From: Parafrankia sp. EUN1f
GTDB taxonomy: Bacteria > Actinomycetota > Actinomycetes > Frankiales > Frankiaceae
Assembly (NCBI RefSeq): GCF_000177675.1
Contig: NZ_ADGX01000072.1
Coordinates: forward strand, 1 to 43,454
Length of the DNA: 43,454 nucleotides
Direction: 5' to 3'
Every line of letters starts with the position of its first letter. Within the stretch, counting starts at the first letter, position 1. Positions 6,707-37,169 of the stretch are shown here, piece by piece. Made by a program: the position numbers and the translations under genes. Below the pieces are notes generated by a model that did not search any database, was not told the DNA's origin, and was given only the letters and a program-made list of their open reading frames with translations.

Positions 6707-8248
6707 TCAGACCGCCGCAGACGCAGCCAGGGCGCGGCGCAGCGGGCCGGCGAGGGTGCCCCGCGGGGCCACCTCGACCGGGCCGAGTTCCAGCCAGGCC
6801 GACATGCCGAGCAGTTCGATGGCGAGCGCCTCGGCCACCACCACCGCCGCCGGCGGCTGGCCGCCGGCCGTCGACGGCCGGGCGCTCGCCATCGCAGGGA
6901 CCGACGCCGGCGCCGCCACGCCGCCGACGAGTTCGGCCGGGTCGGCCGGCTCGGTGAGTTCGCCGGGTCCGGCGGGTTCGGCGGGTTCGGCGGGGTCGGT
7001 GGGTTCGGTGGGGTCGTGCGCCCAGGCGGCGAGAACCCGCAGGACACCGGCGGCCCGGTCGGCTTTCAGGTCGACCCGTGCGACGAGCCGGTCACCCAGC
7101 AGGAACGGCAGCACGTAGTAGCCGTAGCGACGGCGCGGTGCCGGCGTGTAGACCTCGAGCTTCACGTCCATGCCGAACAGCCGCCTGGTCCGCGAACGCT
7201 CCCAGATCAGCGAGTCGAACGGTGACAGCAGTGCGGCGGCGTCGACTCGGCGCGGTATGACGAGCCCAGGGCGCAGGTAGGCCGGTGACGACCAGCCCTC
7301 CACCCGCACCGGCAGCAGGTCACCCGCCTCGACAAGCTCGGCCAGTCGAGGCCGGGCCAACCTGGCCGGGAGCCGGAAGTAGTCGGCGAGGTCACCGGCG
7401 GTGGCCACGCCCAGCCGGTCCGCCGCGTGCAGCAGCAGAGCGCGGTGTGCCTGGGCCGGCTCCGGTGTGGGCACGGCGAGGACGTCGGCGGGCAGCACCC
7501 GCTCGGGCAGGTCGTAGACACGCTCGAAGGTCGCCCGGCGCCCGGCCGCGCACACCTGCCCGGTCCAGAACAGGTATTCCAGCGCGCGTTTGCCGTCCGT
7601 CCACCCCCACCAGGAGCCGCCGCCACGGCCCGGGCCGGGCAACTCGGCCGCGCTGATCGGCCCACGTCGGGTCACCTCGGCGAGTGCCGCCGCGACGTAG
7701 TCGGCGCGTTCCCGCCCGAAGGCCGCGACGCCTCGCCACATCCCTTCGCCTGCCAGGGCCGCCTCGGCTCGCCACCGCAGCAGCGGCTGCCAGGCGACCG
7801 GCACCACGGACGCCTCGTGCGCCCAGTACTCGAAGGCGCGGCGCTCCCGGTGGACGTAGTCGTCGAGAGCGGCCCGCGAGTACGGCCCGAGGCGCGACCA
7901 GCCCGGCAGGTAGTGCGACCTGGCCAGCACGTTCACCGAATCGATCTGGAGGAGGCCGACGCGGTCCAGCAGCCCGCGCAGGTGGCGGCGCCCGGGCAGC
8001 GCGACGGGCCGGGGCCGCCCGAAGCCCTGGACGGCGAGCGCGAGCCGGCGGGCCTGCGCGGCGCTGAGCTGTTCGGGCCTCACCCGGCGCGCCCGCGGGC
8101 CCATCGCGACCACCGGACCCGGCACCTGGGCTGGCAGCGGCTTTCGCGCCCCGGGCGGTGCCGCGGCCGGACCCTGGCCCGATGCCGCTGGCGGCGGACC
8201 AGCGGGAACGGCGGGAACGGCGGAATCGCCAGCCGAGTCGCCAGCCAT
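6707..8248 (-). CDS. YcaQ-family winged-helix DNA glycosylase
   Basis: A 513-residue member of the HTH_42/YcaQ family, whose characterised members unhook interstrand DNA crosslinks by glycosylase action. Recognition rests on ARRLALAVQGFGRPRP, the catalytic-type Q-x-D motif in LLQIDSVNVLARSHYL (Gln101, Asp103) and FEYWAHEASVVPV. The later DSLIWERSRTRRLFG and the Y-rich strand RRYGYYVLPFLLGDRLVARV are also family features. The ATG at 8248 has a poor ribosome site; ATG at 8104, just before the conserved domain, is a good alternative because the first 48 residues are Ala/Pro/Gly-rich. Near the C-terminus a low-complexity Pro/Glu/Thr/Ala stretch is inserted. Confidence 0.88.
   Translation of the reverse strand: MAGDSAGDSAVPAVPAGPPPAASGQGPAAAPPGARKPLPAQVPGPVVAMGPRARRVRPEQLSAAQARRLALAVQGFGRPRPVALPGRRHLRGLLDRVGLLQIDSVNVLARSHYLPGWSRLGPYSRAALDDYVHRERRAFEYWAHEASVVPVAWQPLLRWRAEAALAGEGMWRGVAAFGRERADYVAAALAEVTRRGPISAAELPGPGRGGGSWWGWTDGKRALEYLFWTGQVCAAGRRATFERVYDLPERVLPADVLAVPTPEPAQAHRALLLHAADRLGVATAGDLADYFRLPARLARPRLAELVEAGDLLPVRVEGWSSPAYLRPGLVIPRRVDAAALLSPFDSLIWERSRTRRLFGMDVKLEVYTPAPRRRYGYYVLPFLLGDRLVARVDLKADRAAGVLRVLAAWAHDPTEPTDPAEPAEPAGPGELTEPADPAELVGGVAAPASVPAMASARPSTAGGQPPAAVVVAEALAIELLGMSAWLELGPVEVAPRGTLAGPLRRALAASAAV
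6931..7015. repeat. Low-complexity GGTTCGGCG-type repeat inside the YcaQ-like gene
   Basis: Imperfect tandem units of 9-15 bp (ggcgggttcggcgggttc and variants) encode a run rich in EPA, EPT and DPA on the minus strand. Frame is kept because unit changes are multiples of three. It probably forms a flexible insert and is a likely site of length variation. Confidence 0.75.
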
Positions 8249-8429
8249 CGTGTAATCACCCTGACGGTCACAGCCGCACCGTACGACCAGGTACCGACAG
8301 CTTCACCCCTCCGGAGTCCGCCTGATCCCGCTGAGCTGTCGCTGAATCATGAGGTGCACGGATGCCAGTGACCTACACCGCGTTGTTACTCCCGGCAGCG
8401 CTGATAAGCACCAAGGAGACGCACATGCG

Positions 8430-23975: not shown

Positions 23976-24371
23976 TTAACTTTTCAGCCGACCATCTACG
24001 GTTTTGCGAATTTCATCCCAGGGGTCAGATCGAAGAGATTCCAATGTCTCCATCGAAGTATTCTTATGTCGCGCAACACTCAATCTAATCGACTCGTTCG
24101 AATCTTTGGCCAATCGCCCAAGAAGGCTCGGGGATAACTTTTTCTTCATAGCTACCATAGATCGTACACGAGCATCGGGGTCGTCGATAAGCGATTCCAG
24201 CACCACGAGCGGAATGGTCTTATTTAGAACAACCGCCACCCGCTCTTCCGGGTATCGATCAATGATTTCCATCCACACTTGCTCGGATGCTTCATCTACC
24301 CTAGCCCTGCGATACTCCCCCAGGTCCGAACTCCTGCACAGTCGAACAAACTCCTCGGCGGACTCGATCAC
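23976..24371 (-). CDS. Immunity protein with HEAT/LRV-like repeats
   Basis: A 131-residue all-helical protein. Three or four short repeats are visible: LVVLESLIDDPDARVRSMVA, SPSLLGRLAKDSNESIRLSV and SMETLESLRSDPWDEIRKTV, with the D-x-(D/N)-x-x-(V/I)-R pattern of HEAT or leucine-rich-variant repeats. Its GTG (24371) shares the G of the toxin TAG stop (TAGTG), the same coupling as in the displaced pair. It is AT-richer than the rhs shell. The position directly after the toxin makes it the cognate immunity protein by inference. Helical-repeat proteins of this type are plausible inhibitors because the concave surface can hold the toxin. Confidence 0.78.
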   Translation of the reverse strand: MIESAEEFVRLCRSSDLGEYRRARVDEASEQVWMEIIDRYPEERVAVVLNKTIPLVVLESLIDDPDARVRSMVAMKKKLSPSLLGRLAKDSNESIRLSVARHKNTSMETLESLRSDPWDEIRKTVDGRLKS

Positions 24372-25844
24372 TATTTCACACCCCTTAGACTGCTGTTAGG
24401 GATGAATTTCCCCGTGCCACCCTTCCACTTTCCAACGATATAGGTGCCAAATTCGTCGGCATCCGCGATCCAATTAAGCCCCGTGCCAGTCTCTTCATAG
24501 ACCTTGAACGCCGATCCGGCGTGACCCGTCACATCTGAAGTCCACCACGTACCATCCGAGGAACTCTTGTAGAAGGTTGTCCGGAATGGCCCTCCATTCA
24601 TGATTTTCGAAGAGCCCTCCTTGGTCAGTTGCCAAAGTCCTCTGCCGGCATCCTCACACGTACCTCCAGAATTATGAACCAGGACCGGGGTGGTGCCGGC
24701 GAGGACATAGTACGTGTGGAGGTCGTCGACGGTGAGGTTGTAGACGGTGTGGGTTTCCTGGTAGGTGCGGGTGGTGGTGACGGGGATGGCGCCGGTGGGG
24801 GTTTGGAGCCGGTCGGTGGGGTTGAGGTCCTCGGCGTCGGTCCAGGTGTGGTCGGTGGTGTCCCAGAAGGGGTGGTGGTCGGTGGCGGTGAGGGTGGCGG
24901 GGCCGGTGGGGGTGGCGACGGTGATGTCGACGAGGTGCTTGTCGCCGGTACCGGTGATGAGGGCGGTGACGGTGCGGGGTCCGGTATGGGCGGTTTCGGG
25001 GTTGGTGGCCCAGACCTTGTCACCGACCTTGATGTCGGAGATTTTCCGGGTGGTTCCGTCGGCCATGAGGACGTGGGTGTTGCCGTCGAAGCTGTGGGGT
25101 TTGAGGCAGCTGCGGGCGGCCTGGCCGAGCTTGCTGGCGCCGCCGGTGGCTTCGACGGCCCGGTCGGCTTTGGCGACGCCGCCGGCGACTTCGGCGGCGC
25201 GGGTCGCTTTGGAGGCAGCGGAGATGCCCCGGGCACCGAGGGCGACGACGCGGAGACCGACGCCGACGGTTGCGGTGGGAGGTATGACCGAGAGAACGGT
25301 GAGGCCGGCCTCGACCGGGTGGGCCTTGACATAGGAGACGGTGGATTTTACGGCACCGCCGACGACTTTGTTTACTTTGTTGACGGCGCCGCCAAGCATG
25401 CAGCCCAAGCCGCATTTCTTTGCCTGGGCCTGGACGGGTTTCGCTTTGGCCGAGGCGGTCGCGGTGGGTGGTTTCACCCCGGCCTTCTTGTACGCGAGGG
25501 CGGCGTTCACGCCTGCCCAGAACTTGTCCGCTCCCATCCGGGCGATCTCACGCTGCGCCGCAGCGTTCTCCGCGTCCCGCATGAAGGCTGGCTTCATCTG
25601 CGCGCTCGCCTTGAAGGCGAGAGCGGCGTTGACACCGGCCCAGAACTTGTCCGCTCCCATCCGGGCGATCTCACGCTGCGCCGCGGCGCTCAACGGCGCG
25701 GGCTGCACGGCCACTGGTTTGATCGCAGTCTTCCGGAAGGCGAGGGCGGCCCTGACGCCGGCCCAGAACTTGTCCGCTCCCATCCGGGCGATCTGGCGCT
25801 GTGCCGCCACGTCCAGGACCAGGGGCGGCCGGGGGCCGGGGGGG
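24371..25844 (-). CDS. RHS tip: spacer repeats, pretoxin-HINT and C-terminal toxin (shifted frame)
   Basis: The tip of the main RHS protein, about 490 codons, in a different frame from the shell; one extra C in the run at 25838-25844 would join them (PPGPRPPLVLD). It starts with three spacer repeats (AQRQIARMGADKFWAGVRAA and variants), then a hydrophobic segment (AHPVEAGLTVLSVIPPTATV) and an Ala-rich helix region. A pretoxin-HINT autoprotease-like domain follows, from SFDGNTHVLMADGTTRKISD through DHHPFWDTTDHTW to YVLAGTTPVLVHN. The last about 95 residues are the toxin: GPFRTTFYKSSSDGTWWTSD, GHAGSAFKVYEETGTGLNWI, GTGKFIPNSSLRG. I cannot assign it to a named toxin family. The HINT domain would release the toxin by cleavage after VHN. 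Confidence 0.85.
25515..25800 (-). repeat. Three spacer repeats in the main RHS tip
   Basis: Units at about 25515, 25639 and 25761 on the + strand each contain gcccagaacttgtccgctcc and encode AQR(Q/E)IARMGADKFWAGV. They are the same module as in the displaced tip and lie exactly at the shell-tip border, where homologous exchange of tips would be expected. Confidence 0.85.
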
Positions 25845-28800
25845 TATTCGTGCGGCGGGCCGCCAATCTGTCGATGGAGGCGTACAGCGCGGCCTTGGTG
25901 GAGAAGAAGCCGGTGGGGTCGTTGTAGGTCAGCGGGTTCGCCGCGGCGTAGGTGTAACGGTTCGCCGCGGCCGTGCCGCTGATCGGCAGGCTTGCGGTGT
26001 CACGGCTCGCGAACGTCCCCGTGCCCGGGGTGTACCAGCGGGCCTGCGCGGAGACCCGGTCGGTGTCCGGATCCGTCCAGCTGCCCTGGAAACCGACGTG
26101 CACCGCCGGGTTCCCCGCCACGACGGGGTCACCGAACGGGTCGTAGCTACGGCTGTCGGTGAGCGCCCCGGCGGTGGTGAACGCGGCCACGAGATCACCA
26201 TGGGTGTCGGTGACGGTCGCCCAGTTCCCCGCCGAGGTGCCAACCGCGACCAGATCGCCGTCGGGGTCGCGGGAGAACGACGACGAGTAGTCCGTCGCCG
26301 GTTCCTTCTCCAACCCGGCGTAGGTGAACGGGGCGCTGTTACGGGTGGCGAGCCGGTCCAGACCGTCGTAGGTGTAGTTCTGCGCGGTGCCGCCCTGGTT
26401 GTCGGCGACCAGCCTGCCGAACGCGTCGAACACCGTCGTCGTCACCGTCGACCCCTGGGTCTTGGTGTCCAGCGTCCCGCGCGGGGTGTACGTGTAGGTC
26501 GCCGTGCCGTCCGAGGTCAGCCGGTTACGGGCGTCGAAGGTGGAGACGACACCGTTCTTCGCGGTGCGGTTACCCGCGGCGTCCCAGCCGTAGGTCGTCG
26601 TCACCGACGACTGGTTCGTCCACGACGTCAGCTGGTCGGCCCAGTCGTAGCCATAGCTCTGCGTACCGGCGCCGACGACACCGGCCGGGCCGATGACGGT
26701 CGTCAACCGGTTGTCGTTGTTGTCGTAGGTGTAGGTCTGGGTCCGCCGGACGGTGGAACCGGCGGTGAGTGTGTCACTCGTCGTGCGGCCCAGGTTGTCG
26801 TAACCGAAGGTGCGGGTCGCCCCGGAATAGGTGACCGACGTGATCTGCCCGGCGTCGTCGTAGCCCAGGGTCCGGCTGCCACCGGTGACCGTGCCACTCA
26901 CCGTGGCGAGCTCACCGCGGGCCGTGTAGGTGAAGTTCGACGTACCGGCCGGGTCGGTGCGCTGCGACATCCGCCCGGTCGAGTCGTAGGCGAAACTGCT
27001 CGCCCCACCCGGACCGGCCGCGCCGGTGATCAGACCACGGTCGTTGTAGGTGAACGTCTCGGTGCCACCGGGATGGTTGACCGCGACGAGTTGCCCGAGC
27101 AGGTCGTAGGACAGCGCCCGCGACGCCGACGCGGTGCCCACCCCGGAACCGGCCTCGGCGGTCAGACGGCCGAGCTCGTCATAGGTCGACGTCCGGGTGA
27201 CCCCACCCGGAGCGACGACCGTCACGGGCTCACCGGCAGCGTCGTAACTGCTGGTCCAGGTCCGATCGGCCAGGTTCGGATGCGCGGTCGTCGACGGCTC
27301 GATCACCTTCTCGGCCAGGCCCAGCGAGTTGTACGTCGTGATCGTGGGGTTACCACGGCCGTCGGTGACCCGGGTGGTGTTACCGGCCAGGTCGTAGCCG
27401 ATCGACGTCGTGATGTTGGTGGAGCCGTTCACGGGGACGGTGATGGTGCGCCGCTGGTTGCGGGCGTCGACGGTGGCGGTGGTCGGGTGGCCGTTCGCGT
27501 CGGTCTCGGAGGTGACGTTGCCTGCCGCGTCGTAGCCGGTGGACGTGGAGCGGAGCAGGACGTCGGTGGGTGAGTACTCGCCGACGGTGGTGGGCCGGCC
27601 AGCGCGGTCGTAGGTGGTGCGGGTCTCCCGGCCGAGCGGGTCGGTGGTCGAGGTGCGCCGGCCGGCGAAGTCGTAGGTGTAGGTGGTCGTCTTCCCGAGC
27701 TCGTCATGGGTGGCGGTCAGGTCGCCGGCGCCGTTGTAGTCCGAGGTGGCGGACGCGCCGGTGGCGGCGTTGCCGGGGGTGAGGACGCGGACGAGGTCGC
27801 CGGCGTCGTTGTAGACGGTGTAGGTGGTGAACGTCTGGGTCAGCCACTGCTCGGTGGCGGTGGTCGCCCAGCGCCGGTCGAGGTCGTCGTAGGCGTAGAA
27901 CGTCCACCCGTCTTCCTGGTTGACCTCGGTGAGCAGGTTGTCGGCGTCGTCGTAGATCCTGCGGGTGACGCCGGCCGCGGCCTGGCCGGTGACCTGGGGG
28001 TCGGTGATGGCGACGGGCCGGTCGCGCCGGTCGTAGACGGTGGTGGTGGTCTTGCCGCGGGTGTCGATGTGGGTGGTCGGGTTGCCGTTGTTGTCGTACT
28101 GCCACTGCTCGGTCGGTGTGATCGCGGTGCCGCCGGCGGGTGGGGTGTAGGACGGGTAGGTCTTCTGGGTGACCTGGCCGAGGTGGTTGTAGCTGGTGAC
28201 CGTCACCTGGTTGCGGGCGTCGCGGGCGTGGGTCGGCTCGCCGAAGGTGTTGTAGCCGACCTCGGCGGAGGGCCGGTCGGTGGTTGCGGCGGCGCCGTTC
28301 TCCTCGACCTGCACCGGCGGGGAGATCGTCTGGACGAGGTTGCCGGCCGCGTCGGTGACCTGGTCGGTCACGTAGGCCGGGTTCGGCGCGCCGCCCGGCA
28401 CGTAGCCGCGGGGGTCGACGGTGCTGGTGACCTCGCCGCGCTGGTCGTAGGCGACCGCGCTGGTGAACCGCTGCACTCCGTCGCCGAAGATCGTCCGTGA
28501 TGTCGGCCGGGAGTTGTCGTCGAAGGTGTCCTCGACGCGTCCGGTCGCCGTCGTGCCCGCCGCGGAGAAGTCCTGGGCGGTGACGTTGTCGCCGGCGTCG
28601 TAGGTGAGGTCGGTCCGGCGGGCCACGCCCTGCGGGTCGTCGATGGTGGCGGTGGTCCGGCCGGCCGCGTCGTACTCGGTCGAGGTCGTGCGCAGCCCGC
28701 CGCCGGTGATGGTGGTGACCTCGTTGCCGGCGCCGTCGTAGGCGTGCTCGGCCAGGATGACGTCGTAGGCGCCGGGGCCGGACAGGACCCCGTTGACCAG

Positions 28801-31800
28801 GTCCGGGGGCCGGTAGCCGTCGAGGATCTCCCGGAACGGCAGGTCGTCGAGCCAGTACAGGTAGCGGACGGTGCGGCCCTCGGCGTCGGTGACGGAGGCG
28901 AGGCGGCCGGCCGGGTCGTAGGCCAGCGACTCCAGCACCACGTCGCGCGGCGAGGAGCCGGCGACCGGGTCGTCGACGAAGTCCTCCAGCGTGGTCGTCG
29001 CCAGCTGGTCGTGGGCGGTGTAGGTGTACGAGGTGATCGTGCCGTTCGGGTCCGTCGACGTCGCGACGTTGCCGTTCGGGTCGTAGGTCGTCGCGTAGGT
29101 CGACCAGGGGAAGCTGCCCGCGCCGACGGTGCGGTAGATCTCCCGGTCGTCGTCGTCGTAGCCGTAGCTGGTGGTGCGGGCGGTGTCACCGCCGGTGGCG
29201 TCGGAGACCGTGGTCTGGGTGAGGTTGCCGTTGGCGTCGTAGGTGTTGGTCGCGACCGGGGTGTGCACCACCGAGGTGATCAGGTTGGTGACGCCGGGTT
29301 CGGTGATCTGCGCGGGCAGGCCGAGCTTGGTGTAAGCGGTGGTGGTGGTCAGGCCGGCGGGGAAGGTGTCGGAGATCTCGGTCGACGTCAGCCGGCGGCC
29401 GAGCTCGTCGTAGGTGTAGGTGCGGACCAGGCCGGCCGGGTCCTGGTCACGGCGCAGGTCGCCCTTGACGTCGTAGCCCGAGGTGGTCGTCTTGCCGCCG
29501 GTGTCGGTGTGGGAGACCTCCAGGCCGCGTGGGATCGTCCCGCCGCCAGCCACCGCCGCCTCACCGCCGGTGGAGTAGACCCAGGCCTCGGTGCGGCCGT
29601 ACGGATAGCCCGGTGTCGGCGGCGTCGTCTCGAAGACCTGGTCGCCGAAGCTGTTGTAGCTGTAGTAGGTCGCGTAGGTGTTGTCCGTCGGCGAGGCCGA
29701 CCGGCCGTCCCGGTAGACGCTGATCAGGTCGTTGCGCGGGTCACCGGGCGGGCCGAGATAGTAGCTGTAGTACTCGGTGTTGACGAACAGAACATTGGCG
29801 TAGTAAGCGCGGGCGACCGAACGGGCGAGGACGTTGCCGCGGGCGTCGGTCTCGGTCTGGACGATGTTGCCGTTCTCGTCGATGACCTGGTGCAGGAATC
29901 CGAGGTCGTTGTAGACGAACGACCGGTTCCCGATGTCGTCGCGCTCGGAGATCAGCTTGCCGTCGTGGTACTCGAACTCGGTCTGGTGGGCCCGCGGGTC
30001 GGTCACCCGGACGACCGTGTTCGGGCTGGTCGACAGCACCGCGTAGGTGGTGCGGTTACCCAGCCCGTTCTCCCGCCACGCCACGGTGTTGTCGGTGTTG
30101 TATCCGATGGTCGTGTCGATGTTGCCCTCGGGCAGGGTGATCTGCCCGAGTTTGTCGTTGTACGCGTAGCTGTAGGTCGTCGGGTTGGCCGAGTGAGGGG
30201 CGGTGACCGAGGTCAGCTTGTCGCCGGAATAGGCGTAGCTCCAGGTCAGCGCGCCACCGTGGGCGGCGACGTTCTGGGTGGACACGGCGGTGACGTGGGT
30301 GCCGGTCCAGGTCAGCGACAGCGTCCGCTGGGTGGTCAGGTTGGCCACCGAGGTCAGCCGGGCGTTGCTGTTGTAGGTCAGCTCCAGCTGCCGGCCGGCC
30401 GCGTCGGTGACCACTGCCAGCCGGCCGTCGGAGCGGAACGTGTACGCGCTCCCGGACTTCTCGGTCAGTGTGGTCGCCGCGGTCGCGGAGACGTCGTCGA
30501 TCCGCCCGGACCCGGTCGCCTCCGCGAACGGGCCGGCGCGGCTGCCGTAGACGACCGCCGGGTCGTTCACCGCCAGGATCTGGGTCCCGTTGCGCTGGAC
30601 CCGGATGTCCGGTCCGTCCGTGATGACCGTCAGCGCGTCCGACGCGGTGCAGCACTGCCCCGCGCTCGACGTCGCGACCACCGTCTCGGCCCCGCCGACG
30701 CGTTTGACCAGCTGCCACGTCCCCGCCGACGGCTGGGCCACCACCCGCCAGTAGTTGTTCGGGTCCGCGTAGCGGAACGCCAGTCCCAGCCCGGTCTGCG
30801 CCACCGGCATCTTGAAGGAGAACAGGCCGTCCGCGGCCGCGGACACGGTCGCGACGTTGCGGTTCCCCGACGCGGCGGCCAGGTAGGCCGCGTTCCCGGA
30901 AATGCCCCAGGTGCCGTTACCCAGCCCCGGCAGCGACTGCGTCTGCCACTCCTCACCGGTGTCGCCCGTCCCCAGTTCGGTCGACGAGTTCGCCCGGGTG
31001 AAGCTGTCGCGGTGCTGGTCGTCGACGATCGTGACCGACCCGATCCGCCCGGTACCGGTGGCCTGCGCGAACAGGCCCGCCTTCGTCGCGGTCGAGAACT
31101 GCGAGTCGGTGGCCGACCCGACGACCTGGTCGTTGCGGTAGACCGTCAGCGCCGAGCCCGCCATCCGCACCGCGTACGTGTCACCCGCGGCGCAGCAGGC
31201 GCCGGTGAACGTCGCGACCGTCGTCTTCGTCCCGCCTACCCGCTTCGCCAGGATCAGCGCGTTGCTCGAGGGCTGCGTCTGCAGGATCCACAGGTTGTTG
31301 GCGTCCTGAACCCGGAACGCGACCCCGAGATTGTCCTGCGCGACCGGGGCGGTGAACCGGACCAGCCCCTCGGACGGGGCGGGCATCACCGCCGTGCCAT
31401 ACGTCCCCGACACCAGGTAGGCGTTGTTCCCGTTGATCCCCCACGTTCCGGACAGGACCTGCCAGGTCTCACCCGTGTCCGCATCACCCAGCGTGATGGT
31501 CGAGTTGGCTGCGGTGAACGACGCCACCTGCGGGCTCGGCGCCTGCATCAGCGAGTAGTAGCCGTCCTGCGGCGTGAACATGCCCAGCCCGTTCCGGCCG
31601 AACCTGGTGTCCCGCCCGTCCGGGTAACGCACGACCAGGTTGCCCTCACCGGAGTCGTCGGCCCGGACGCTCATGTCCCACTGCGACGACCAGCCCGCCC
31701 CGAAAAGGCCCACCGACGGGTTACCGCTGTTGTACGTCCGGGTCAGCCCCAGCTCGGGCCCCGCTCCGTCCACCGAGATGTCCGTCGCCGACGACGCGTA

Positions 31801-34287
31801 GCTCCGGATCAGCGGCGACACCGAATCCACCGACGGCGCGTAGGGGTCCCCGCCGAAGTGCGCGCTCGTCACCGGCTCCGGGATCTGGGTGTAGATCGTC
31901 ATCGGCGCGGTCCACGCGCTGGTGACCCCGCCCGACTTGACCCGCCCTCGCCAGTAGTACGGATACCCCCAGCTCAACGCGTTCGCGGTCACCCGCCACG
32001 ACGAGCTCGTGATGAAACCCCCCGACGTCCAGCAGAAGCCGCTGGCCGCGTCCGGGTTCGAGCAGATCTGGAACTCATACGTCGGGCTCGACTGGTTGCT
32101 GGAAAGCGTGAGCTCCGGGCGCAGCGTGTTAACCCGCTCCGCGTCCAACGGCGTCGACCCGGTCACCTGCACCCCGGTCGCCGGCGGCGCGACCAGCGCC
32201 ACCGGCAGCATCGAAACACCGTGTGTGGAGAAGAACGCCCCGCCCGACCCGGTGTCCTGCATGTCGAACTTGACGATGTAACTGCCCGCCGGCGGCGGGC
32301 TGACGATCGCCTGCACGTCGACCGACTGCCCACGGGCGACCGCCACCGGCAGATTCGTCTGATATCCCTGCGCCACGATTTCGGTGGTCCCAGTGATGTC
32401 ATAGACGTGGTACGACAGCTTGTACTGGCCGCCCGCCGGCCAGGTGTTCTTTCCGCGGTTCGTCACCCGAACCTTGATCTTGCCCGGCTGGGTCGCGGTC
32501 AACGCCTGGTCCCACACCGGCGACCCCGACGGCCACGCGTACGCCGCGTCATACGGCGACCAGGTGATGTTCATCTTCGGCCGGTGGTCCCCCGACGTCC
32601 CCGCCGCCGTGCAGGCACAGTCCTGCGAGTCGAACTCCTTGTACTCGGCGACATTCCACGACGACGCCCGCACCGACAGGCCCTGGTTTGCCGTGGTGCC
32701 GTCGTTCCAGTCCTCGACCAGCTCCGTCAGCCGCGAGTCGGAGAACGTCTCCCAGCCGGCGTCACACCCCGTGTTCCCGCTCTGGTGCGAGAAAGTGCCC
32801 TGCGCGACCTCACCGCCGGTCGTCGCACCCGGCCACACCATCGTGGTGCCGTTCCACGCCTGCGTCACCTGGTACAACGACACCGGATGCGCCGTGCACG
32901 CGTCGTGCGAGTCCGTGTTGAACAGCGACACCTGCGCCGACAGGACGTTCGCGTTCGCCAGCGCCGAATTGTTCGGGAAATGCAGGTAGCCGTGGTTCAG
33001 GTCGCCGCTGGCCCGCAGCCCGACCCGCAGCTTCCCGTCCGACGGCTGCGGCGTGTTCGGCGTCGCCGACGACACCCAGGTGTCGTCGGCACTCGCCGCC
33101 AGCTGGGTGACCGTCGGGTCGACCCGCACCGGGAACACCCGCTCCGGCGCCGCCAGCCAGTCGGCGTCCAGGTCGACCCGCAGTGCCGGCGCACCGCCGT
33201 CCGCCCCCTCGACCAGGCTGTAGGTAACGCCTTCCGACGTCGCCGGCTCCGGCGACGAGTCCTCCATCCACCCCCGCGGGATCAGCGCGACCGGCGAGCC
33301 CGACCCGTCGGAGAGAACCACCTGGCCCTGCTCGTCCAGGCTCGCGGTCAGCCCTTCCAGCGCCAGCGGGAACGTCCAGCTCGTCGGCGCGTCGGGTGAG
33401 CGCAGGACGATGACCTCCTTGAGCCCCGACCCCGTCGCCGACAGCTCCAGATCCGCTTGCTCCCGAACCTCGGCGAACGTCACCGACTGCGCGTCGGCCT
33501 CCCCCGGCGACGCCGCCGCTCCCTCCAGCGCGAACCCCGCCGACACGTCCTCACCCAGCTCGACCCGGGCCAGCTGCGGGTCGTCCGCCTCCTCGGCGAA
33601 CGTCACCGGCGCCGCCACCGCCCGCGCCTCGAACCCGCCGCCGCTCTGCTCCACCAGCGCGGTGTCCACCTCCGCCCACTCGCCCTGGGCATCCCTGAAC
33701 CGCACCGGCTCCGCCGACAGCTCCGTCGAATACGTCCCGTCCGGGTTACGGAACACCGTCGCGTTCTCCGACCGGGCCGACTCGACCTCCACCCGGCCCG
33801 ACTGCACCGTGCCCGGATCCCGCGCCCCCGGCGCCAGCTCCTCCTCCGACGGCAGCTCCGCGCCCGCCGGCACCTCCGGCAGCTCCACCTCCCCCTGCGG
33901 CGCGTCCGGGCCGGTCGGGTGCACCACCCGCCGCGGCGCCACCTCCGGCGTCACCGGCACCGCACCCTCGACCGGCTTCACCCGCGACGCCAGCTCCGCC
34001 TCCCCCGGCGTAGCGTCCCGCGACGTCTCCTCCGCCGCTACCAGATGCTCCCGGCCCTCAGCAGTGCCATTCGACGACTCAGGCAGCTTCACATCCCGAA
34101 ACGGGTTCCGCTCCGAGATCGGCACCAGCTTCGGATCCTTCACCCGGTCCAGCGCCACCAACGCGATCCCGGTCATGACCAGCGCCGGCACCAGCAGCAG
34201 CGCCACCCGGCGCAGCCTCCGGTGCCGCCGCAACATTCGACGGCCAAACGACAAAGAAGTACGCGGGGAAGGGTGCCGGGCGGTCAT
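25690..34287 (-). CDS. RHS/YD-repeat polymorphic toxin protein, shell part
   Basis: A shell of about 2790 residues before the frame break, stopping at 25690. ATG at 34287 has GGAG at -9 and gives the N-terminus MTARHPSPRTSL, then one membrane anchor (RRVALLLVPALVMTGIALVA). In order follow a DNRLRE domain (about nt 33090-32600: DDTWVSSATPNTPQPSDGKL, GYLHFPNNSALANANVLSAQ) and an Ig-like region. The DUF6531 start (about 31830: GAGPELGLTRTYNS, FGAGWSSQWDMSV) comes next, then two LamG-like inserts (31500-30490), then dozens of YD repeats (for example YDANGNLTQTTV) and the closing motif NRYTYAAANPLTYNDPTG near 25930. The YD shell forms a hollow cage around the toxin. With its tip restored the product is about 3300 residues. 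No T6SS or PAAR gene is nearby; export is probably anchor- or Sec-linked. Confidence 0.9.
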   Translation of the reverse strand: MTARHPSPRTSLSFGRRMLRRHRRLRRVALLLVPALVMTGIALVALDRVKDPKLVPISERNPFRDVKLPESSNGTAEGREHLVAAEETSRDATPGEAELASRVKPVEGAVPVTPEVAPRRVVHPTGPDAPQGEVELPEVPAGAELPSEEELAPGARDPGTVQSGRVEVESARSENATVFRNPDGTYSTELSAEPVRFRDAQGEWAEVDTALVEQSGGGFEARAVAAPVTFAEEADDPQLARVELGEDVSAGFALEGAAASPGEADAQSVTFAEVREQADLELSATGSGLKEVIVLRSPDAPTSWTFPLALEGLTASLDEQGQVVLSDGSGSPVALIPRGWMEDSSPEPATSEGVTYSLVEGADGGAPALRVDLDADWLAAPERVFPVRVDPTVTQLAASADDTWVSSATPNTPQPSDGKLRVGLRASGDLNHGYLHFPNNSALANANVLSAQVSLFNTDSHDACTAHPVSLYQVTQAWNGTTMVWPGATTGGEVAQGTFSHQSGNTGCDAGWETFSDSRLTELVEDWNDGTTANQGLSVRASSWNVAEYKEFDSQDCACTAAGTSGDHRPKMNITWSPYDAAYAWPSGSPVWDQALTATQPGKIKVRVTNRGKNTWPAGGQYKLSYHVYDITGTTEIVAQGYQTNLPVAVARGQSVDVQAIVSPPPAGSYIVKFDMQDTGSGGAFFSTHGVSMLPVALVAPPATGVQVTGSTPLDAERVNTLRPELTLSSNQSSPTYEFQICSNPDAASGFCWTSGGFITSSSWRVTANALSWGYPYYWRGRVKSGGVTSAWTAPMTIYTQIPEPVTSAHFGGDPYAPSVDSVSPLIRSYASSATDISVDGAGPELGLTRTYNSGNPSVGLFGAGWSSQWDMSVRADDSGEGNLVVRYPDGRDTRFGRNGLGMFTPQDGYYSLMQAPSPQVASFTAANSTITLGDADTGETWQVLSGTWGINGNNAYLVSGTYGTAVMPAPSEGLVRFTAPVAQDNLGVAFRVQDANNLWILQTQPSSNALILAKRVGGTKTTVATFTGACCAAGDTYAVRMAGSALTVYRNDQVVGSATDSQFSTATKAGLFAQATGTGRIGSVTIVDDQHRDSFTRANSSTELGTGDTGEEWQTQSLPGLGNGTWGISGNAAYLAAASGNRNVATVSAAADGLFSFKMPVAQTGLGLAFRYADPNNYWRVVAQPSAGTWQLVKRVGGAETVVATSSAGQCCTASDALTVITDGPDIRVQRNGTQILAVNDPAVVYGSRAGPFAEATGSGRIDDVSATAATTLTEKSGSAYTFRSDGRLAVVTDAAGRQLELTYNSNARLTSVANLTTQRTLSLTWTGTHVTAVSTQNVAAHGGALTWSYAYSGDKLTSVTAPHSANPTTYSYAYNDKLGQITLPEGNIDTTIGYNTDNTVAWRENGLGNRTTYAVLSTSPNTVVRVTDPRAHQTEFEYHDGKLISERDDIGNRSFVYNDLGFLHQVIDENGNIVQTETDARGNVLARSVARAYYANVLFVNTEYYSYYLGPPGDPRNDLISVYRDGRSASPTDNTYATYYSYNSFGDQVFETTPPTPGYPYGRTEAWVYSTGGEAAVAGGGTIPRGLEVSHTDTGGKTTTSGYDVKGDLRRDQDPAGLVRTYTYDELGRRLTSTEISDTFPAGLTTTTAYTKLGLPAQITEPGVTNLITSVVHTPVATNTYDANGNLTQTTVSDATGGDTARTTSYGYDDDDREIYRTVGAGSFPWSTYATTYDPNGNVATSTDPNGTITSYTYTAHDQLATTTLEDFVDDPVAGSSPRDVVLESLAYDPAGRLASVTDAEGRTVRYLYWLDDLPFREILDGYRPPDLVNGVLSGPGAYDVILAEHAYDGAGNEVTTITGGGLRTTSTEYDAAGRTTATIDDPQGVARRTDLTYDAGDNVTAQDFSAAGTTATGRVEDTFDDNSRPTSRTIFGDGVQRFTSAVAYDQRGEVTSTVDPRGYVPGGAPNPAYVTDQVTDAAGNLVQTISPPVQVEENGAAATTDRPSAEVGYNTFGEPTHARDARNQVTVTSYNHLGQVTQKTYPSYTPPAGGTAITPTEQWQYDNNGNPTTHIDTRGKTTTTVYDRRDRPVAITDPQVTGQAAAGVTRRIYDDADNLLTEVNQEDGWTFYAYDDLDRRWATTATEQWLTQTFTTYTVYNDAGDLVRVLTPGNAATGASATSDYNGAGDLTATHDELGKTTTYTYDFAGRRTSTTDPLGRETRTTYDRAGRPTTVGEYSPTDVLLRSTSTGYDAAGNVTSETDANGHPTTATVDARNQRRTITVPVNGSTNITTSIGYDLAGNTTRVTDGRGNPTITTYNSLGLAEKVIEPSTTAHPNLADRTWTSSYDAAGEPVTVVAPGGVTRTSTYDELGRLTAEAGSGVGTASASRALSYDLLGQLVAVNHPGGTETFTYNDRGLITGAAGPGGASSFAYDSTGRMSQRTDPAGTSNFTYTARGELATVSGTVTGGSRTLGYDDAGQITSVTYSGATRTFGYDNLGRTTSDTLTAGSTVRRTQTYTYDNNDNRLTTVIGPAGVVGAGTQSYGYDWADQLTSWTNQSSVTTTYGWDAAGNRTAKNGVVSTFDARNRLTSDGTATYTYTPRGTLDTKTQGSTVTTTVFDAFGRLVADNQGGTAQNYTYDGLDRLATRNSAPFTYAGLEKEPATDYSSSFSRDPDGDLVAVGTSAGNWATVTDTHGDLVAAFTTAGALTDSRSYDPFGDPVVAGNPAVHVGFQGSWTDPDTDRVSAQARWYTPGTGTFASRDTASLPISGTAAANRYTYAAANPLTYNDPTGFFSTKAALYASIDRLAARRTNTPPAPGRPWSWTWRHSARSPGWERTSSGPASGPPSPSGRLRSNQWPCSPRR
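25838..25844. other. Seven-G homopolymer at the shell-tip frame change
   Basis: The + strand has ccGGGGGGGtatt. On the coding strand the shell frame reads RRTNTPP and then leaves the family sequence, while the tip frame picks up at GPRPPLVLD. An eighth C/G restores one continuous reading frame. It could be a phase-variable tract, a slippage site or a base-call error. Confidence 0.75.
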
Positions 34288-35280
34288 CACAGCTCCGAAA
34301 CGCGCGGGGAACAGGCACGAGCCACGCAGAACACACAGAACACGGCCCCCAGGCGGACAGCCCGACGGCCGCACACACCCCGGACCCGGCCGCCGCTTTC
34401 CCCGCCGACGAGAACGAGGAGGGCACGGCAGACTCACCGGCGTGCGCACACCACAAAGAAACGAGCCCAGGGAACGGCCAGGCCGCCCCGGCCACGCGGA
34501 CGCAGGGAATGCGGCAGAACCCGCCGGCGAGAGCAGGCGGTGAAACACCGGCGCCAGTGCCGGTGACCTGCCCAGCCACACCAGCCAACGGACAGCTGGC
34601 GACACGCGGGCAGCACAGATCGATAGTCATGGAACGGGAAAGAACAAAGACACGCCGGCACAGCGCCGTACACGGCGAAAACCCACCGGCAGCCAGGATG
34701 AACCCGGGGCGACCGGCAGGACAACGAGCAGGGAACCCAGGCCACCGCAGCAGCCTTGAAGCAAGCGCCGCAAAGCATGGCACGCCCAACAACCAGGTGC
34801 AAGAAATTACTCAAAGTTCCCACGGAAGATCAAAGATGACGCTCCGCAAGCGTCGGGCAACCAGTAAGGAAGACGCGCGCGGATACCACCAGTCCGGCAG
34901 AAGCGCGAAGTCGTCAGAGGACCGCGGGCTGACGGCTGACGACGTCACGCCGCGCGGGCAGGGACCACCCTCGGACGTCAGGTCGGCAGCGCACGGACGT
35001 CAGGTCGGCAGCCCACGGACTAGGCGCCCGACTCACAGGCAACACACAGAATTTTCAGCAAACCGTCAGCGAGGGCCGGCCGCGGTCTGCCATAGTGACT
35101 CACCGCCCCCGCGCCACCACCACACCAAGTCCTCCACACACAACCCGGCCCACCTACCCCCAGCACCCCGCCAGACACGGCCCGGGCAACCGGCCGTGCC
35201 CGAATCTGGCCCGCCACACGCAAACCCACGGCTCACCGGCCCGAAGTCGAGCCGAATCCCACCCATACCCAATACCCCAT
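34288..35280. other. About 1 kb of T-poor, A-rich (+ strand) DNA upstream of rhs
   Basis: By hand count of 34321-34800, T is 21 of 480 bases (about 4 percent), while sampled lines have A at about 27 percent; bases 34321-34380 have no T at all. The bias continues more weakly to about 35280 and then stops. Frames open here give Arg/Pro-rich sequence on one strand and Cys/Val-rich on the other, and resemble no protein. It may be an untranslated leader of the rhs transcript with U but hardly any A. From 35281 to 35659 I see no gene either. Confidence 0.65.
34972..35020. repeat. 22-bp tandem repeat, 2.2 copies
   Basis: The unit cggacgtcaggtcggcagcg(c/-) is present at 34972-34993 and 34994-35015, and the next bases (cggac) start a third copy. 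It lies in the unexplained region upstream of rhs. Confidence 0.8.
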
Positions 35281-35659
35281 GCCCCGTGCCTTCCGCCGGC
35301 ATCGCGCCGCGCGGTCGGCCTCACGGCGGCCGGGGTGAGGAACAACCAAACCGCCACGTTCGCGGCCGGTGTTCTCACCTGCGAGAACAGCGCCACGGCG
35401 CGGGTGTCGTCGGCCCTTTCCAGAAAGGAAAACGCGCGGGTGAGCCAGCGTGACCGCCTCCTCCGCGGACCAGGCAGGCCGGCCACCTCGCGGCGGCCTG
35501 TTCCCGAGTACGCGGCACGCTCCACGCACCTCCAACCGCCGCCACGCGGCCTTTCCCCCGAGCCGCCGCCAGCGCCGAACGGTGCCAGCGCCGACCAGCC
35601 GTCCCGTCTACTACAGGTGGAAGACATCCCGCGTGCCGCCCCCACCGTCTTATCCGGGC

Positions 35660-35692
35660 AAAGAGAAACCCCGGCCTGGACCCAGACCGGGG
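35660..35692 (-). terminator. Intrinsic terminator of the small TTG-start gene
   Basis: On the minus strand CCCCGG-T-CTGG loops over GT to CCAG-G-CCGGGG (35692 to 35669), followed by TTTCTCTTT (35668-35660). It begins 17 bases past the stop of the gene at 35709 and is the most classical rho-independent terminator in the window. Confidence 0.85.
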
Positions 35693-35708
35693 CGCTCGTG
35701 GTCGCCGG

Positions 35709-35957
35709 TCAGCCGGCCGTCGGCACCGCCGCGGTCTCCTCGACGACGGTGAACAGGCCACCATCAACCGCGCTCCAGTCGCTGACGGAGCGGAAACCGA
35801 GGGTCGCGAGCAGCTTGTCGGCGGCCTCGCTGAGGGCGGGGACGTCGGCGGCGTCGAGGCGGCCGACGATGGTGCCTTCCGTGTCAGCCGCACCACGGAC
35901 GATCCGGACGTCGAGGGTGTCAGCGTCGACGAACGCGTAGGTGTTCGTGTCAGTCAA
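35709..35957 (-). CDS. Small hypothetical protein with TTG start
   Basis: An 82-residue protein. TTG at 35957 is chosen because AAGGAGG sits 6-12 bases upstream, a near-perfect ribosome site, and because the sequence before it is not protein-like. It reads TDTNTYAFVDADTLDVRIVR, GTIVGRLDAADVPALSEAAD, KLLATLGFRSVSDWSAVDGG, LFTVVEETAAVPTAG. It is acidic and soluble, with mixed alpha/beta pattern, no Cys and no signal peptide. It is a stand-alone unit closed by a strong terminator. No family is recognised. Confidence 0.75.
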   Translation of the reverse strand: MTDTNTYAFVDADTLDVRIVRGAADTEGTIVGRLDAADVPALSEAADKLLATLGFRSVSDWSAVDGGLFTVVEETAAVPTAG

Positions 35958-37169
35958 GGAAGCCTCCTTGGGACATGGGAGAGATCGGTCCGATCCGTAC
36001 GAGGGCCAGCCTCTCGCAGCGACGCGGACCCGAACCACGCGCCTCCCGAGGTGTCAGGCCGCACGGAGTTATGGCGTGTCGTGGTCGTCCCACGAGGCCA
36101 ATCCCAAACCGATGGCGGCCAAGTCCGGTCCAACCGCAGCTGTGCAGGCGCTAAATGGTAGATGTCGTGGGGCGCCAGTCCGCGACCGGATGATGTGCGG
36201 CCCAGCGCGGTTGGGAACTGCCGGTCCGTGCCTCTGAAGTCCCGTCGGCGGGGTCGATGCCAAGCCGGTCGACGAAGAACTCTCCGCAGTTGGCGACGGC
36301 CAGATCCGGGGTGACTCGGCACGCTCGGCCAGGCGCGACGGGGGCACCTTGTCCGCAGCCGGGTACCCAGGTCTCACGCGAACCGCTACTCGACCGCACC
36401 GTCATGTTGAACGTCGTGAAGGCGTTCACCTCCATCATTTGGACGAACGCGGGGTTTCACTGAGGCAAGAGGGAGACCATCCACTACAAATCGGCGTGCG
36501 GGGGAGCGAGCGGGTTTCTCAACCGAGAGCGACACGGAGAGGAACGACTTCGGGTGGGAATCCGCGGGGACCGGTCGGTGCCGCGCGAGCCAGGCGGGCT
36601 GCCGTTCGTGATCGGCATTGGCAGATCCACGATTTCAACCATACCTGTCTCCCCGGCCCATCTGCCCTGAGCGCGATTTTCCTGGCCTCATCCGGGATGC
36701 CTCGTTCATGCCAGCAATAGTCCACATCCAGGCCACGTTATTCGACCGCTCCTGCGGCCCGGCACATGGAGACATCGCCGAGGAGCGGCGAACAATCCCT
36801 CGGCGCACCGGGAAATCTGTCGTCGCAGGTGGCGGGGAGTCCGACGTCTCCCGACCCGCCTGGAAGGCGGTGATCGAAGCCATAACCGAAAATCCGGTGG
36901 TGGTCAAACAGAACCGGACGGCGCAATGGCCCGTGGGTGGCGTCCGTCGCTGATTTGGTCGAGGCGCTCCACATTCGGGCACGGGAATTCGTGGTCCGTG
37001 GCCGACGACCGCCACCTCACATGCCGGCATATTGGGCACCGCTGATGTTACCGGTCGGCCACCTGTCCACCCGGCCGCCAGTGTCGGCACCGGCGCGCGA
37101 CGCGGTCGCGGCCAGGTGCGGAATGCTGCGCGGTCCGGGTCGGCCCGCCTCCGACGAAAGCGGTTGCCC
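35958..37169. other. 1.2 kb without a recognisable gene
   Basis: Several short frames are open, but none shows a family motif together with a ribosome site. The best candidate is a minus-strand frame at 36151-36438 (MEVNAFTTFNMTVRSSSG onward, three Cys), which I leave unassigned. The region is slightly AT-richer than its surroundings around 36600-36960 and may be decayed sequence. Confidence 0.5.

What the first reader, a model, noticed from the sequence alone, without database searches (positions are those of the whole stretch)
34288..35280. One kilobase of extreme A-over-T strand asymmetry upstream of rhs
Hand counting gives about 4 percent T on the + strand in 34321-34800 against about 27 percent A, with one 60-base line lacking T entirely. 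Coding or neutral DNA here does not look like this, and the bias ends near 35280. As an rhs leader the RNA would be rich in U, G and C with hardly any A, hence poorly structured in A-dependent motifs. It could reflect transcription-linked mutation, an R-loop region, or an unknown element.
Basis: seen in the sequence. Interest (0 to 1): 0.65.

Follow-up and report, generated by a model that had tools for sequence, protein, structure and literature searches.

The report
A-poor leader of rhs toxin genes
The stretch with almost no T on one strand is the untranslated front end of a giant toxin-type (rhs) gene in a Frankia-family bacterium; its sister genes mostly share the odd composition, many share a conserved RNA hairpin there, and the imbalance continues into the gene, which points to a process tied to transcription.

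Summary
The skew is real: T 4.4% against A 26.9% on + in 34321-34800. In the 300 nt before the rhs start, T-over-A on the rhs strand is 0.74; the maximum of 268 other upstream spacers from three Frankiaceae genomes is 0.39. It recurs: 19 of 26 close rhs homologues in the family exceed that maximum.

The stretch does not look coding. It looks like a long 5' leader: a weak promoter-like site at 34774-34802 puts the inferred start near 34766. 20 of 26 leaders carry an RNA element absent from Rfam: a hairpin followed mostly by GUCRC, its helix paired in 98.3% of cells with compensatory change at one pair. But all six leaders without the element are skewed, and all seven that are not above background have it, so the element does not explain the skew.

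The asymmetry continues into rhs: at fourfold sites of codons 61-450, G exceeds C in 22 of 22 loci tested (pooled 0.45; background mean -0.05) and T exceeds A in 19 of 22. That favours a transcription-linked process over leader-only selection. Transcription and function are inferred.

The parts
25690..34290 (-). rhs gene downstream of the leader: RHS repeats and DUF6531; N-terminal basic stretch and one hydrophobic segment (read by eye); start GTG 34290 / ATG 34287
   Evidence: Pfam hits; translated N-terminus
34291..34766 (-). inferred untranslated leader (476 nt), A 4.2%, T 26.9% on the rhs strand
   Evidence: composition; homologues; not coding by indels and substitution phase; start site inferred from promoter position only
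34293..34297 (-). ribosome-binding-site-like CGGAG before GTGATG
   Evidence: sequence, present in all 8 aligned leaders
34503..34625 (-). conserved RNA element (model R1)
   Evidence: covariance model match; pair counts
34608..34613 (-). 5' arm of helix P1 (CTGCCC)
34568..34573 (-). 3' arm of helix P1 (GGGCAG), followed by GTCACC
34774..34802 (-). proximal promoter-like site TTGCAC-N17-CATGCT (weak match to consensus)
   Evidence: lines up with TTGTGA-N18-(A/G)ATGCT of three other-genus leaders
35084..35097 (-). distal conserved block CACTATGGCAGACC
   Evidence: 14 hits in 35 genomes, 10 upstream of group A rhs genes found and one more at a contig edge
34968..35020 (.). 2.4 copies of a 22-bp tandem repeat, partly lost in G005
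35668..35693 (-). terminator-like hairpin after the small upstream ORF
35709..35957 (-). small upstream ORF (about 82 aa), no Pfam match
   Evidence: no family; caller

Best explanation
The region is a long untranslated 5' leader of an rhs gene, of a kind found before rhs homologues in Frankiaceae. Its skew is the strongest part of a strand asymmetry that runs from the leader into the 5' part of the rhs gene; most likely it comes from a process tied to transcription that pushes C to T and A to G on the non-template strand (mutation or biased repair, perhaps helped by strand exposure). In most of these leaders there is in addition a conserved RNA element that probably acts in cis on rhs expression. 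Shown: the skew, its recurrence, lack of coding signal, the asymmetry at synonymous sites, the conserved helix, a distal conserved block. Inferred: transcription from the proximal site, the mutational cause, the regulatory role.
For: 19 of 26 group A rhs loci exceed the maximum of 268 background spacers; 5 of 10 tested loci of a second rhs type do too, two of them near-identical copies. In the 13 loci where I assigned a promoter the skew from the inferred start to the start codon (0.48-0.73) is higher than in the 200 nt before the promoter (0.03-0.41). Fourfold sites, codons 61-450, 22 loci: G over C in 22 of 22 (0.24-0.77, pooled 0.45; of 206 background genes with at least 15 A+T none reaches 0.4), T over A in 19 of 22 (pooled 0.36 against 0.19). 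In the window's rhs the G-over-C value falls from 0.70 in the first 286 codons to 0.09 by codons 1144-1430 and below zero after. The index (T/C)/(A/G) of the first 500 codons is above all 233 genes tested, and that of the leader above all 246 spacers tested. The C-T over A-G exchange bias does not differ between leader and fourfold sites (7 comparisons, p 0.09-0.95), as one process in both would give. RNA element: two weak R1 hits in whole genomes lie just upstream of group A rhs genes; in 26 rhs loci the five best hits (E 5e-6 to 2e-3) are in rhs leaders; helix P1 98.3% paired in 20 leaders, covariation score and cells with double change reached by 0 of 500 shuffles, slid controls 17-58% paired. 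Not coding: substitutions 10/11/13 over the phases, 1-nt gaps.
Against: No transcript or mutation data. The promoter scan found no site at its threshold, and the promoters of the 13 loci were chosen by me from candidates. The 200 nt before the promoter are skewed too (0.28-0.41 in 12 of 13), so the step at the inferred start is partial. Why rhs and not other genes is unexplained; G over C at fourfold sites could be codon choice, and in the leader itself G and C are nearly equal. 7 of 26 loci are not above background. P1 arms in divergent leaders were picked with pairing in view; the double changes all sit on one pair, and two of five measures do not beat shuffles there; in the first 8 leaders no measure does. 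All six leaders without the element are skewed and all seven unskewed ones have it. The sixth best R1 hit is not in a leader. The 26 loci are related copies, not independent cases.
Confidence: 0.5

Rival explanations
1. Selection on the leader RNA: in a leader held together by pairing with G, C-to-U keeps the pair as G-U while G-to-A breaks it, so U builds up and A is purged.
For: C-T exchanges exceed A-G in the leader; G is the most conserved letter (0.82) and A the least (0.42), though rare letters score low for that reason alone; conserved helix P1; sense folds are more stable than antisense and than A/T-swapped versions in 12 of 12 leaders, as G-U pairs would give; leader identity is above fourfold identity in two comparisons within the second genus (0.77 and 0.73 against 0.61).
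Against: Normalised for base content, the exchange bias is the same at fourfold sites, and the asymmetry continues into codons. Leaders are not more stable than shuffles or A/T-redrawn versions (z -1.6 to +1.3, 12 leaders). The element does not track the skew. Leader identity equals or is slightly below fourfold identity in the other five comparisons.
Confidence: 0.25
2. R-loops in the leader and 5' rhs expose the non-template strand and cause the asymmetry.
For: G over C on the rhs strand at 34950-35399 and at fourfold sites of the first codons.
Against: Little G-over-C excess in the leader itself. No mapping data.
Confidence: 0.08
3. The T-over-A composition serves a protein that binds U-rich, A-poor RNA (for example a cold-shock protein, S1, Rho or a NusG-type factor; names recalled).
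For: U-rich 300 nt in 19 of 26 loci, including the six without the hairpin.
Against: No motif, no data; the asymmetry goes on in codons.
Confidence: 0.08
4. The region is coding, as an N-terminal extension of rhs or an antisense gene.
For: Long open frames, among them a 314-aa + frame and an rhs frame open to 34605.
Against: Few stops follow from the composition; substitutions are even over the phases and 1-nt gaps occur; start and ribosome site are conserved at 34290 in 8 leaders.
Confidence: 0.02

Closest known systems
Transcription-associated strand asymmetry (recalled)
   Same: Shift to T and G on the non-template strand, strongest at the 5' end of a transcription unit
   Different: Far above other upstream spacers and genes sampled here; concentrated on rhs genes
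Cis-regulatory mRNA leader RNAs (riboswitches, attenuators, protein-binding leaders)
   Same: Long 5' leader, conserved hairpin, tied to one gene family, just before the start
   Different: No Rfam match, no shared ribosome-site pairing found, hardly any A, ligand or partner unknown
Long leaders of large exported-toxin operons with RfaH/ops-type control (recalled, no call)
   Same: Long leader before a very long exported-toxin-type gene
   Different: No ops sequence was looked for and no factor is known here

Membership tests
Transcription-associated strand asymmetry | Same direction of shift in non-coding and synonymous sites of the unit | tested here: met
Transcription-associated strand asymmetry | Biased mutation rates on the non-template strand | not testable with these tools
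   Only fixed differences available; C-T over A-G in leader and fourfold sites alike
Known Rfam family | Match to a covariance model | tested here: not met
   34000-36100, both strands, no match up to E 1
Structured cis-regulatory leader RNA | Compensatory change in a helix | tested here: met
   Helix P1, 20 leaders, double changes at one pair; not above shuffles in the first 8
Structured cis-regulatory leader RNA | Tied to one gene family | tested here: inconclusive
   The 8 model sources and 2 of 13 weaker hits precede rhs; the other 11 have no rhs N-terminus within the fetched flanks and look like chance; two hits outside the family lie inside genes
Structured cis-regulatory leader RNA | Transcribed and alters expression | not testable with these tools
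   No RNA data
Transcription attenuator with intrinsic terminator | Conserved terminator in the leader | tested here: inconclusive
   8 terminator-like matches in 34200-36100 against 2.5 expected; conservation of each was not tested
R-loop region | G over C on the RNA strand | tested here: inconclusive
   Not in 34350-34949; present at 34950-35399 and in fourfold sites of 5' rhs
Protein-coding gene | Phase-dependent substitution, gaps in threes | tested here: not met

The most novel reading that the evidence does not exclude
Rhs toxin-type genes of Frankiaceae carry a new family of regulatory leader RNA, and their 5' ends are hot spots of transcription-linked strand-asymmetric change, so that the toxin loci evolve under a mutation regime of their own; strong T-over-A skew in high-GC non-coding DNA could then be used to find such units elsewhere.
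Probability: 0.3. Interest if true: 0.75.

Novelty: new member of a known kind. Interest (0 to 1): 0.5.

Why it matters
How bacteria switch on very large polymorphic-toxin-type genes is poorly known, above all in actinobacteria. A conserved leader RNA before rhs would give a direct handle on it. A strand asymmetry this strong, confined to one gene family, would be a natural test bed for mutation tied to transcription.

Tried and rejected
Coding on either strand. Extra fold stability (the script printed '100 controls' but ran 40). A shared pairing partner of the ribosome site: none. Alternative pairing GCAGG/CCTGC in the element: broken in G005, 45 of 500 shuffles reach its score. Similar DNA in plasmids or phages: none. 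A simple pattern for the element: about as frequent as its reversed control, so not specific; its listing was cut short. R1 outside the family (E up to 1e-4, stricter filters): two hits in the 296 genomes of the class, both inside genes and taken as chance. The order-level protein search returned the same 35 genomes as the family. One Streptomyces homologue (L019): upstream T-over-A at most 0.29 in 150-base bins.

Changed on checking: an earlier version argued that fourfold sites lack the C-T excess of the leader and so favoured selection on the RNA. Searches, run for the check, show that this was an effect of base content and that the asymmetry goes on into codons. Odds were moved from RNA-level selection to a transcription-linked process. 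The claim that one-sided changes in helices are wobble-compatible was dropped, since it holds by definition.

Dropped before counts: of 27 group A loci that I took, G009 (contig edge) was left out, which leaves 26; G027 contig C42 (no rhs start found) and G015:C313 (partial) are not counted. Group B is 10 of 25 distant rhs places. One search left out G002, G004, G005 and G022 (start uncertain or frame broken early) and so covers 22 of 26. The 8-leader alignment is 8 of 26. Only one gene of 4,500 bases or more was called in the two 400-kb samples; its upstream skew is 0.05, so 'other large genes' remains nearly untested.

Papers: search listings only; none was opened. One search (Frankia, rhs, leader) listed one paper, PMC3482391; (rhs gene, untranslated region, polymorphic toxin) none. 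That is the whole basis for saying that I found no description of this leader in print.

Full report
Observation. The strong part ends near 34800; a milder part (T 9-10%) runs to about 35280.

Setting. The region lies between the start of an rhs gene on the - strand (start 34290; RHS repeats and DUF6531) and a terminator-like hairpin at 35693-35668 after a small upstream ORF at 35709-35957. On the rhs strand the stretch is T-rich and almost free of A. The genome belongs to Frankiaceae: G029 of the same family has contigs of the lengths of Frankia nepalensis CN7. The window's own genus is not named by any search.

Background. Genes were called with a simple script in 400 kb of G003, 400 kb of G031, 58 kb of G000 and the window. 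In 268 upstream spacers of 300 bases or more, T-over-A in gene direction has mean 0.00, sd 0.16, max 0.39; the rhs leader of the window has 0.74. The maximum belongs to a spacer that is probably coding. Two other strongly skewed windows are not coding: one mostly masked by N and one repeat-filled spacer between converging genes.

Recurrence. The N-terminal 500 residues of Rhs searched in 35 genomes of the family gave close relatives, mostly of 3,000 residues or more (group A, 27 loci), and distant ones of about 2,100 (group B, 25 places). Of group A 26 could be read upstream: 19 exceed the background maximum; G031c, G029f, G029e, G031e, G017, G002 and G004 do not, and the start of G002 is uncertain. 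Of group B I read 10 and 5 exceed it, two of them near-identical copies. These loci are related and not independent. One Streptomyces homologue shows no strong skew.

Anatomy. DNA similarity of 67-71% to another genus covers up to 425-504 nt upstream of rhs, and a separate short block further up matches too. That block, CACTATGGCAGACC at 35084-35097, has 14 matches (GACC or GGCC form) in the 35 genomes: 10 lie upstream of group A rhs genes on the rhs strand, one (G027 C42) points off a contig edge beside leader-like DNA, three lie elsewhere. Nearer the gene, six homologues have good promoter matches, TTGACG-N17/18-(G/C)ATATT or CATAGT; the window has a weak counterpart, TTGCAC-N17-CATGCT, which puts the start near 34766. 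The generic scan did not report it. In 13 loci with a promoter assigned by me, the skew is 0.48-0.73 from the inferred start to the start codon and 0.03-0.41 in the 200 nt before the promoter.

Not coding. Substitutions between the window and G003 fall 10/11/13 over the phases and 1-nt gaps occur.

RNA element. Eight leaders align over most of their length; one lacks the 5' part. A 117-position model (R1) of window 34503-34625 found its 8 sources and 13 weaker hits in the 35 genomes; two of the 13 lie just upstream of group A rhs genes on the right strand (G029 C26, G028), the other 11 have no rhs N-terminus in the fetched flanks. In 26 rhs loci (98 kb, filters off) the five best of 31 hits are in rhs leaders; the sixth is not, the seventh is. 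The core is UGCUGC, a hairpin of varying length, GCAG, then mostly GUCRC. I could place it in 20 of 26 leaders; G029a-d and G031a, b lack it. Helix P1 in the 20: 98.3% of cells paired; one pair is C-G in 14, G-C in 3, G-U in 2 and unpaired in 1; the covariation score, the paired cells and the cells with double change are reached by 0 of 500 shuffles, the other two measures by 422 and 137. Related sequences can exceed shuffles without structure, and the arms in divergent leaders were chosen with pairing in view, though UGCUGC and GCAGGUC anchor most of them. In the first 8 leaders alone the structure did not beat shuffles. Rfam has no match. In 296 genomes of the class R1 hit outside the family twice, both inside genes; scores of 28-33 bits thus occur by chance, and the weaker rhs hits (18-27 bits) count only because of where they lie.

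Element and skew do not go together. The six leaders without the element all exceed the background skew; the seven leaders that do not exceed it all have the element. So the element is not the cause of the composition.

Cause of the skew. In six leader comparisons at 67-77% identity, C-T exchanges number 50-66 and A-G 13-22; at fourfold sites of the first 500 codons 2-6 and 2-7. I first took this for a leader-only bias. Normalised for the bases present, the bias is the same in both (7 comparisons, interaction p 0.09-0.95). The base make-up agrees: at fourfold sites of codons 61-450 in 22 group A loci, G exceeds C in all (pooled 0.45; background mean -0.05, none of 206 genes at 0.4) and T exceeds A in 19 (pooled 0.36; background 0.19). 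In the window's gene the G-over-C value falls from 0.70 to 0.09 over about 1,400 codons and then turns negative. So pyrimidines are shifted to T and purines to G on the rhs strand, in the leader and in the 5' part of the gene. A transcription-linked process accounts for both at once; selection on the leader RNA would need a second cause for the codons. Codon choice could contribute to G over C, and in the leader G and C are nearly equal, so this is a preference, not a proof. Fold energies do not single out the leader.

Verdict. It marks a long rhs leader whose composition recurs across a family of rhs genes, runs on into the gene, and is most simply tied to transcription; most leaders hold in addition an RNA element that I found in no library searched. 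That the leader is transcribed and regulatory is inference.

Noticed in passing
window 35084-35097 (-): CACTATGGCAGACC, a nearly rhs-specific 14-mer about 560-820 nt upstream of rhs in Frankiaceae; could be an operator or a distal promoter.
   Followed up: partly
window 25690-34290 (-): Fourfold sites of rhs are G-rich in the first 1,100 codons or so and C-rich from about codon 1,430 to 2,290; the 5' G excess recurs in 22 of 22 homologues tested.
   Followed up: partly
window 24371-25810 (-): Open frame overlapping the end of the rhs ORF, with a pretoxin HINT domain match (PF07591).
   Followed up: no
window 23976-24371 (-): 131-aa frame with leucine-rich-variant and HEAT repeat matches just downstream; possible immunity protein, by position only.
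   Followed up: no
L015 (G005), about 7,650-8,400: In G005 the leader is conserved but the rhs open frame is only 242 codons long.
   Followed up: no
L167 (G031 C1 3268138-3268466): Spacer between converging genes with two copies of a repeat and strong strand asymmetry.
   Followed up: no
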